NCBI GenBank assembly: GCA_011503125.2
Contig: WWBZ02000051.1
Location: 372,001 to 436,000 of the forward strand
Direction of reading: 5' to 3'
Length of the DNA: 64,000 bases
From: Botryosphaeria dothidea
Lineage: Eukaryota; Ascomycota; Dothideomycetes; Botryosphaeriales; Botryosphaeriaceae
Within the stretch, counting starts at the first letter, position 1. Every line of letters begins with the position of its first letter. A program made the translations under genes and the position numbers. The notes below the pieces were generated by a model. It was not told the DNA's origin. It ran no database searches and worked only from the letters and a program-made list of their open reading frames with translations. Positions 58,774-58,909 of this stretch are shown here, piece after piece.

Positions 58774-58909
58774 CGACGTTGACAAGATTCGAACTTGTGC
58801 TCCCGAAGGAAACAGATTTCTAGTCTGTCGCGATAACCCTGAGAGATCATTAGCATAAACGCTGGGTTGATGGTATTCGGTGAGGTTGCTTACACTCCGC
58901 CACAACGCC
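58774..58909 (-). tRNA. tRNA-Ser(AGA), interrupted in the D-loop
   Basis: Read on the minus strand. The 5' acceptor strand GGCGTTG (58909-58903) pairs with CAACGTC (58781-58775), with one G.T pair; the discriminator is G. D-stem GCG/CGC, anticodon stem ACAGA/TCTGT, anticodon loop CTAGAAA with anticodon AGA, a long variable arm with a TTCGG loop (class II, as expected for serine), and T-arm ACAAG-TTCGAAT-CTTGT are all intact. The D-loop is split by 55 nt (58839-58893). Without the insert the tRNA is 81 nt. The internal A box (TGGCGGAGTG) ends at the insertion point and the B box (GTTCGAATC) is intact. No intron is present at the usual 37/38 position. Confidence 0.85.
58839..58893 (-). other. 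55-nt spliceosomal-intron-like insert in the tRNA D-loop
   Basis: On the minus strand the segment starts GTAAGC, has a GCTAATGA branch-like site 14-17 nt before its end, and ends CTCTCAG. All three signals match the protein-gene introns of this window. One G is shared at the borders, so the exact ends are ambiguous by one base. Confidence 0.7.

What the first reader, a model, noticed from the sequence alone, without database searches (positions are those of the whole stretch)
58774..58909. Nuclear tRNA-Ser(AGA) gene split in the D-loop by a spliceosomal-type intron
Seen directly: a serine tRNA with all stems paired, interrupted after D-loop GAGT by 55 nt that begin GTAAGC, contain GCTAATGA and end CTCTCAG. 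Removing it gives an 81-nt class II tRNA; the standard 37/38 intron is absent. Known: nuclear tRNA introns in fungi sit at 37/38 and are cut by the tRNA splicing endonuclease. D-loop introns are known from archaea and some red algae, and introner-like elements that spread as spliceosomal introns are known in Dothideomycetes. Inference: an introner or reverse-spliced intron landed in a Pol III gene. It may be removed by an unexpected route, or the copy may be dead.
Basis: partly seen in the sequence, partly recalled or inferred. Interest (0 to 1): 0.88.

Follow-up and report, generated by a model that had tools for sequence, protein, structure and literature searches.

The report
Spliceosomal introns inside fungal tRNA genes
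In a plant-associated fungus, at least sixteen transfer-RNA genes, including every phenylalanine one found, are interrupted by insertions that look like messenger-RNA introns, so the cell's mRNA splicing machinery probably has to help make its tRNAs.

Summary
It is not a lone oddity. The genome (Botryosphaeria, by one 99% protein match) has four Ser(AGA) genes: three split at the same nucleotide, one unsplit. Inserts of the same architecture sit in at least 16 tRNA genes: Ser(AGA) 3 of 4 found, Phe(GAA) 5 of 5, Leu(CAG) 3 of 3, Ala(AGC) 3 of 3 complete genes, Glu(TTC) 1 of 3, His(GTG) 1 of 3. They are 51-59 nt, all GT-AG, all with CTAAY 10-11 nt before the 3' end; ten ordinary tRNA introns lack this. 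Exons stay identical or change in compensating pairs while inserts diverge. No unsplit Phe gene was found (three mismatches allowed), so removal must work if the assembly is complete. A U6 gene in the same genome carries such an intron too. Most likely these are U2-type spliceosomal introns in Pol III tRNA genes, removed by the spliceosome. There is no RNA evidence, relatives could not be searched, and literature access was partial.

The parts
58894..58909 (-). tRNA-Ser(AGA) exon 1: acceptor 5' strand and 5' side of D arm, ends GAGT (16 nt)
   Evidence: pairs with 3' strand CAACGTC; identical to L002 exon 1
58839..58893 (-). 55-nt spliceosomal-type intron in the D loop, just before the G-G that starts exon 2
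   Evidence: same position in L002 and L003, absent from L004
58888..58893 (-). 5' splice site GTAAGC
   Evidence: also the donor of the U6 intron and, by reading, of one SEN1 intron in this window
58849..58853 (-). branch site CTAAT, 10 nt before the 3' end of the insert
   Evidence: CTAAY at 10-11 nt in 16 of 16 inserts
58839..58841 (-). 3' splice site CAG
58774..58838 (-). tRNA-Ser(AGA) exon 2: rest of D arm, anticodon arm, variable arm, T arm, acceptor 3' strand and discriminator (65 nt)
   Evidence: identical to L002 exon 2
58819..58821 (-). anticodon AGA
   Evidence: ARAGORN call on the form without insert; place counted
58892..58902 (-). A-box-like Pol III promoter element TGGCGGAGTGT, which runs 2 nt into the intron
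   Evidence: read; consensus recalled
58786..58794 (-). B-box core GTTCGAATC in the T arm
   Evidence: read; A-to-B distance 108 nt against 53 in unsplit L004
58758..58761 (-). TTTT downstream, candidate Pol III terminator
   Evidence: no control was run for T-runs

Best explanation
The insert is a U2-type spliceosomal intron in a working RNA polymerase III tRNA gene, one of at least 16 in this genome. Inferred pathway: Pol III transcribes the split gene to a downstream T-run; U1 binds the GTAAG-type donor, U2 the CTAAY branch site, and the spliceosome cuts out the 51-59-nt intron as a lariat and joins the exons; the joined RNA folds as a tRNA and is end-processed, and where a 37/38 intron is also present the tRNA splicing endonuclease and ligase remove that one. 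Shown: positions, signals, host-like architecture, exons better conserved than inserts, no unsplit Phe gene found. Inferred: transcription, removal by the spliceosome, order of steps. Not shown: how the introns got in (reverse splicing followed by reverse transcription and recombination is the favoured guess).
For: (1) 16 of 16 inserts start GT and end AG and have CTAAY 10 nt (13) or 11 nt (3) before the 3' end; letter shuffles of the inserts give CTAAY at 5-20 nt in 6% and GT..AG in 0.16%. Nine of the 16 (Ser_2-3, Phe_3-5, Ala_2-3, Glu, His) were found through exon or T-arm/acceptor matches, not through these signals (Ser_2 also matched in the insert). (2) Host mRNA-type introns look alike: two SEN1 introns in the window (by reading), and 15 scan candidates outside the tRNA inserts, chosen by donor and branch motif so that only length and spacing inform: 12 of 15 are 49-68 nt and 12 of 15 have 9-14 nt from branch to YAG (they include SEN1, U6 and a U3 intron). 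(3) 0 of 10 ordinary tRNA introns that I picked has GT..AG or CTAAY in that zone. (4) Removal gives a tRNA of the expected type by ARAGORN in 14 of 16 genes. (5) The five Phe genes share one exon set while inserts are 50-66% identical; Ser L001/L002 exons 81/81 identical, inserts 69%; Ser T-stem pairs 49-65 and 52-62 differ as compensating doubles (read). (6) Joined Phe junction, up to 3 mismatches: 0 hits in the genome. (7) A U6 gene there carries a 58-nt GTAAGC..CTAAC..CAG intron.
Against: No RNA data. Two weak splice sites: GTTCGT donor in one Phe gene, AAG acceptor in His. Exon 1 is only 8-30 nt and a Pol III transcript has no cap (recalled), which should handicap the spliceosome. The His insert follows nt 8 and so parts the A box from the start of the gene. 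One insert (Ala-AGC_2) contains TTTT, a possible early Pol III stop. The three Ala inserts pair with the exon before them over 5-6 bp, through the branch motif. Exon identity could partly reflect gene conversion; no rate test was run. An unsplit Phe gene could be missing from the assembly. ARAGORN misparses two of three Leu genes after removal, and it also accepts some wrong removals as tRNAs of other types, so it is a permissive test.
Confidence: 0.82

Rival explanations
1. The inserts are ectopic tRNA introns removed by the tRNA splicing endonuclease through bulge-helix-bulge structures, as in archaea and Cyanidioschyzon; the GT..CTAAY..AG signals are coincidental.
For: Sites after nt 25 and 30 and in the D loop resemble archaeal non-canonical sites (PMC4090602 passages). 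The three Ala inserts pair with the preceding exon over 5-6 bp; Ser_2 reaches 4 bp at the junction.
Against: Longest exon-insert pairing averages 3.75 bp against 3.74 in shuffles (16 inserts), while 13 ordinary introns of the same genome average 4.92 against 3.55. This tests pairing with the upstream exon only, not a full motif. 16 of 16 inserts carry spliceosomal signals.
Confidence: 0.07
2. The split copies are dead insertions; unsplit genes supply the tRNA.
For: Unsplit paralogues exist for Ser(AGA) (L004), Glu(TTC) (L087, L117, identical to each other) and His (L161, L167). [quoted passage not shown]
Against: No unsplit Phe gene. All 23 matches of a joined Phe+Ala+Leu probe lie at five Phe, three Leu and three Ala loci, all split, and one Ala T-arm fragment. 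Exons are identical or compensating while inserts drift. Splice signals are kept in all 16.
Confidence: 0.06
3. The inserts descend from one mobile introner-like family that spread through tRNA genes (a rival on origin, compatible with removal by the spliceosome).
For: Uniform length and branch spacing. Between-family similarity has mean z 1.3 over 101 pairs, top z 4.2, and two pairs (Leu_3/Glu 0.73, Phe_1/Glu 0.70) are as alike as inserts within a family; part of this is the shared branch motif. Leu_3 and Glu share a 17-nt 3' end; the longest in 300 shuffled sets is 14.
Against: The whole-gene query found no copies outside the four Ser(AGA) genes. Within-family identity is only 0.50-0.75 and the position is constant within each isoacceptor, which points to old insertion, duplication and drift. 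Apart from Leu_3/Glu the longest shared stretch between families is 11 nt, against a mean maximum of 10.25 in shuffles.
Confidence: 0.15
4. Assembly or sequencing artefact.
For: C3 seems to duplicate part of C12: Ser(GCT), U6 and Glu(TTC) genes recur at an offset of about 1.70 Mb.
Against: The 16 inserts are all different in sequence and lie at 16 different places.
Confidence: 0.01

Closest known systems
mRNA-type introns in fungal U6 snRNA and U3 snoRNA genes
   Same: GT-AG introns with a branch site inside small structured RNA genes, with split and unsplit copies side by side. This genome has one in a U6 gene and at least one in U3.
   Different: The host here is tRNA, with internal promoters, a dedicated splicing enzyme of its own, and several isoacceptors hit at several positions. 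A 2017 paper calls U3 and U6 the only small structured RNAs known to be often interrupted by an intron (PMC5832005, passages).
Ordinary 37/38 nuclear tRNA introns removed by the SEN endonuclease and Trl1-type ligase
   Same: Short introns in nuclear tRNA genes; the 13 split genes other than Ser carry one of these as well (two Leu by reading).
   Different: Position, GT-AG ends, branch site, and no raised exon-intron pairing on average.
Ectopic tRNA introns of archaea, Cyanidioschyzon merolae and nucleomorphs
   Same: Introns in the D arm and anticodon stem (PMC4090602 section 5; PMC3978253 and PMC9602550, passages).
   Different: Those of archaea and C. merolae are tied to bulge-helix-bulge motifs and how nucleomorph ones are removed is unknown; here the inserts carry full spliceosomal signals.
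Spliceosomal introns in fungal 18S rRNA genes
   Same: Spliceosomal introns in a non-coding RNA gene (PMC11889510, passages, citing Cubero et al. 2000).
   Different: rRNA, not tRNA.

Membership tests
U2-type spliceosomal intron | GT-AG ends with host-like donor | tested here: met
   16 of 16 GT..AG; donors GTAAGT 6, GTAAGC 3, GTCAGT 3, GTAGGT 2, GTAAGA 1, GTTCGT 1; acceptors CAG 10, TAG 5, AAG 1
U2-type spliceosomal intron | Branch site at host-like distance from the 3' splice site | tested here: met
   CTAAY 10-11 nt before the 3' end in 16 of 16; 12 of 15 host candidates at 9-14 nt
U2-type spliceosomal intron | Removed by the spliceosome through a lariat | not testable with these tools
   no RNA data
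Functional nuclear tRNA gene | Intact tRNA after removal | tested here: met
   ARAGORN on forms without insert: Ser 3/3, Phe 5/5, Ala 3/3, Glu 1/1, His 1/1, Leu 1/3; the other two Leu genes by reading
Functional nuclear tRNA gene | Exons better conserved than the insert between them | tested here: met
   gene conversion not excluded, no rate test
Functional nuclear tRNA gene | T-run downstream as Pol III terminator | tested here: inconclusive
   a run of 4 or more T within 60 nt (49 nt where less was held) in 16 of 16 split genes, without a control
Ordinary tRNA intron (SEN type) | Position 37/38 | tested here: not met
   inserts follow nt 8, 16, 18, 25 or 30
Bulge-helix-bulge ectopic tRNA intron | Exon-insert pairing at the junctions | tested here: not met
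   mean 3.75 bp against 3.74 in shuffles; ordinary introns 4.92 against 3.55; the three Ala inserts are exceptions with 5-6 bp; full motif not modelled
Introner-like element | Many near-identical copies in the genome | tested here: inconclusive
   none found for the Ser insert (a tool that skips very common words); the other 13 inserts were not searched against the genome on their own; one between-family pair shares 17 nt
Introner-like element | Target-site duplication | not tested
   no locus of a relative before insertion could be reached

The most novel reading that the evidence does not exclude
In this fungal lineage the spliceosome is an obligatory tRNA-maturation enzyme: every tRNA-Phe(GAA) gene, and probably every Ala(AGC) and Leu(CAG) gene, is interrupted by a U2-type intron, and many precursors need two splicing systems, spliceosome and tRNA endonuclease, on the same RNA, so translation depends on mRNA-type splicing directly through its tRNAs.
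Probability: 0.68. Interest if true: 0.96.

Novelty: new variant of a known kind. Interest (0 to 1): 0.9.

Why it matters
Nuclear tRNA introns are held to sit at 37/38 and to be cut by a protein endonuclease. A set of tRNA genes with spliceosomal introns, some without any unsplit copy found, would show that the spliceosome can process Pol III tRNA precursors in nature and that mRNA-type introns can settle in tRNAs and become indispensable. It makes testable how an uncapped RNA with an 8-30-nt first exon is spliced, in what order spliceosome and tRNA endonuclease act on one RNA, and how spliceosomal introns enter non-coding genes. It also means that tRNA annotation of such genomes is incomplete: ARAGORN and Rfam miss the window gene, and ARAGORN misnames split Phe as Arg and split Ala as Val.

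Tried and rejected
A general pattern for A-boxes interrupted by GT..CTRAY..AG was sent nine times unchanged and never answered. Scans of viral and prokaryote contigs for the Ser pattern gave 0 matches each, as expected for a fungal gene. The recalled-tRNA probe gave five matches, four Lys-like and one initiator-Met-like, so split genes for Asn, Cys, Ile, Tyr and Pro, if any, are uncounted. The B-box census covers only T arms with GGTTCGANTCC: 172 places, against 96 for the reversed control, of which 86 are GGTTCGABTCC (control 85) and 86 GGTTCGAATCC (control 11). 165 of the 172 lie in stretches I held; the seven others are on C14 (2), C15 (2), C26 (2) and C27 (1). None of the 40 GGTTCGAATCC places fetched last is a tRNA. 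RF00005 scored only 63 of 1497 candidates. The tally of 16 is therefore a lower bound. One search is discarded (one row had wrong coordinates). The first branch-spacing count included tRNA inserts and is replaced, from whose 16 rows I drop one faulty row (negative length), leaving 15; two of these share one donor and some may be mitochondrial. On re-checking I raised the shared-origin rival from 0.10 to 0.15, because between-family similarity is higher than I had first written.

Full report
Observation. The gene is on the minus strand at 58909-58774: exon 1 of 16 nt ending GAGT, a 55-nt insert GTAAGC...GCTAATGA...CTCTCAG, and exon 2 of 65 nt with anticodon AGA, class II variable arm, T arm and acceptor strand. 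ARAGORN finds nothing in the gene as it stands and tRNA-Ser(aga) when the insert is left out. ARAGORN and Rfam find no tRNA in the window. A window protein of 343 aa is 99% identical to one of Botryosphaeria dothidea, so the genome (51.7 Mb, 78 contigs) is taken to be from that genus or very near it.

Other Ser(AGA) genes. A search with the whole gene found four places, and an anticodon-arm pattern with up to three mismatches found the same four and no control match. Three (this one, C47:3602027 and C47:2053681) have a 55-nt insert at the same nucleotide; the fourth (C12) is unsplit. L001 and L002 have identical exons (81 of 81) and inserts 69% identical. In 16 columns that I set as donor, branch and acceptor, 15-16 agree in every pair; in the other 39, L001/L002 agree in 22, L002/L003 in 14 and L001/L003 in 11. 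Exon differences between L001/L002 and L003/L004 include two compensating double changes in the T stem, and L003/L004 differ by one in the acceptor stem (read).

More split genes. Stretches around T-arm patterns were fetched and scanned. Inserts with the same signals turned up in Leu(CAG) (three genes, after nt 25), Ala(AGC) (three, after nt 18), Phe(GAA) (after nt 30), Glu(TTC) (one of three, after nt 30) and His(GTG) (one of three, after nt 8). The Glu insert is absent, to the nucleotide, from two paralogues that are identical to each other (L087, L117). The 13 genes other than Ser also carry an ordinary 37/38 intron (two Leu by reading). The Ser(GCT) and Ser(CGA) genes seen have only ordinary 37/38 introns. 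A BLAST probe of joined exons gave 23 matches: five Phe, three Leu and three Ala loci, all split, and a T-arm fragment of Ala on C36; at the split loci matches run at most 8 nt past the joined junction, into the insert. A pattern across the joined Phe junction, three mismatches allowed, has 0 matches in the genome. All five Phe genes share one exon set. Phe has one anticodon (recalled), so the insert must be removed if the assembly is complete.

What the inserts are. All 16 begin GT and end AG and have CTAAY 10 (13 genes) or 11 nt (3) before the 3' end; lengths are 51-59 nt. Chance per shuffled insert is 6% for CTAAY at 5-20 nt and 0.16% for GT..AG. Six of the 16 were noticed with splice motifs in view; nine came through exon or T-arm matches. 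Of 10 ordinary tRNA introns that I picked (five from Phe), none has either feature. Introns of the window's SEN1 gene read GTAAGT..CTAAC..CAG and GTAAGC..CTGAC..TAG (the second by reading). Of 15 mRNA-type candidates outside tRNA inserts, selected by donor and branch motif, 12 are 49-68 nt and 12 have 9-14 nt from branch to YAG; 6 of these 15 fall at 10 or 11 nt, against 14 of 193 CTAAY sites without a donor upstream. Pairing with the upstream exon, which the tRNA endonuclease route would favour, is at the shuffled level on average (3.75 against 3.74), whereas 13 ordinary introns used as control exceed theirs (4.92 against 3.55); the three Ala inserts are exceptions with 5-6 bp. The inserts thus look like the host's spliceosomal introns, not like tRNA introns.

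Origin. Inserts within an isoacceptor share the site but are only 50-75% identical; between isoacceptors similarity is slight on average (mean z 1.3, 101 pairs), but some pairs are as alike as within a family, and Leu_3 and Glu share a 17-nt 3' end (0 of 300 shuffled sets). Some exchange or common source is therefore likely for at least that pair.

Precedent inside the genome. Of three U6 genes found (47 of 2779 candidates scored), two copies on C3 and C12, identical in the stretch read, are unsplit and one (C18:304005) has a 58-nt GTAAGC..TACTAAC..CAG intron with a B-box-like GTTCGATCCC inside it; the stretches next to the intron match the unsplit copies. At least one of two U3 candidates has a 63-nt GTAAGT..GCTAAC..CAG intron. 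So a small-RNA gene, for U6 a Pol III gene (recalled), with a spliceosomal intron is normal here.

Mechanism. The tRNA promoter boxes and a T-run of four or more within 60 nt downstream of all 16 genes (no control) fit Pol III; A-to-B-box distance in the split genes is 108-143 nt. Removal by the spliceosome is inferred from signals, host-like architecture and conservation. The intron in the window gene starts near the end of the A box and leaves it almost whole; the His insert does not.

Literature. A 2014 review, read in its section on eukaryotic tRNA introns, treats D/T-arm insertions as likely pseudogenes, with nucleomorphs and C. merolae as exceptions (PMC4090602). A 2014 review (passages) places nuclear tRNA introns exclusively at 37/38 in general and describes algal exceptions (PMC3978253). 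A 2017 paper (passages) names U3 and U6 as the only small structured RNAs known to be often interrupted by an intron (PMC5832005). Ten answered full-text searches showed, in the titles and abstract starts listed (20 of 108 papers), no paper on spliceosomal introns in nuclear tRNA genes; the library lacks most subscription journals, so prior description cannot be excluded.

Limits. No RNA reads, no relatives' genomes, an incomplete tRNA census. Some splice sites are weak, and gene conversion may contribute to exon identity. The origin of the introns is unknown.

Noticed in passing
L063 (G000:C18:304005-304103 and downstream): A U6 snRNA gene split by a 58-nt mRNA-type intron that contains a B-box-like GTTCGATCCC; two U6 copies (C3, C12), identical in the stretch read, are unsplit and have a B-box-like GTTCGACCCCC downstream of the T-run.
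   Followed up: partly
L064, L065 (G000:C7:553462, C29:2279735): L065 (U3 snoRNA) has a 63-nt GTAAGT..GCTAAC..CAG intron near the 5' end; L064 appears to have one too, by reading.
   Followed up: partly
3' trailers of the five Phe and three Ala(AGC) genes (L002, L033, L183, L184, L186; L072, L162, L172): A similar hairpin in all five Phe trailers (CCAGYC..GRCTGG, with a T-A to C-G paired change in one copy and a mismatch or wobble in two) and a CTGG..CCAG one in the Ala trailers lies between the tRNA 3' end and a first T-run at +35 to +49; in the split Ser and Leu genes the first T-run is at +3 to +13. It might hold the precursor while introns are removed.
   Followed up: partly
G000:C3 and C12: Ser(GCT), U6 and Glu(TTC) genes recur on C3 and C12 at an offset of about 1.70 Mb, suggesting a duplicated or haplotype segment in the assembly.
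   Followed up: no
tRNA-Gly(GCC)-like genes L059, L060, L135, L137, L151: Several of these genes have long introns near 37/38 (66-67 nt by ARAGORN in four of them) that differ in sequence; ARAGORN labels one Thr.
   Followed up: no
G000:C47:3602027-3602162 and C47:3602601; L003: A split Ser(AGA) gene and a split Phe gene lie about 440 bp apart on C47; another split Ser(AGA) gene (L003) lies about 730 bp upstream of a Ser(CGA) gene with an ordinary intron.
   Followed up: no
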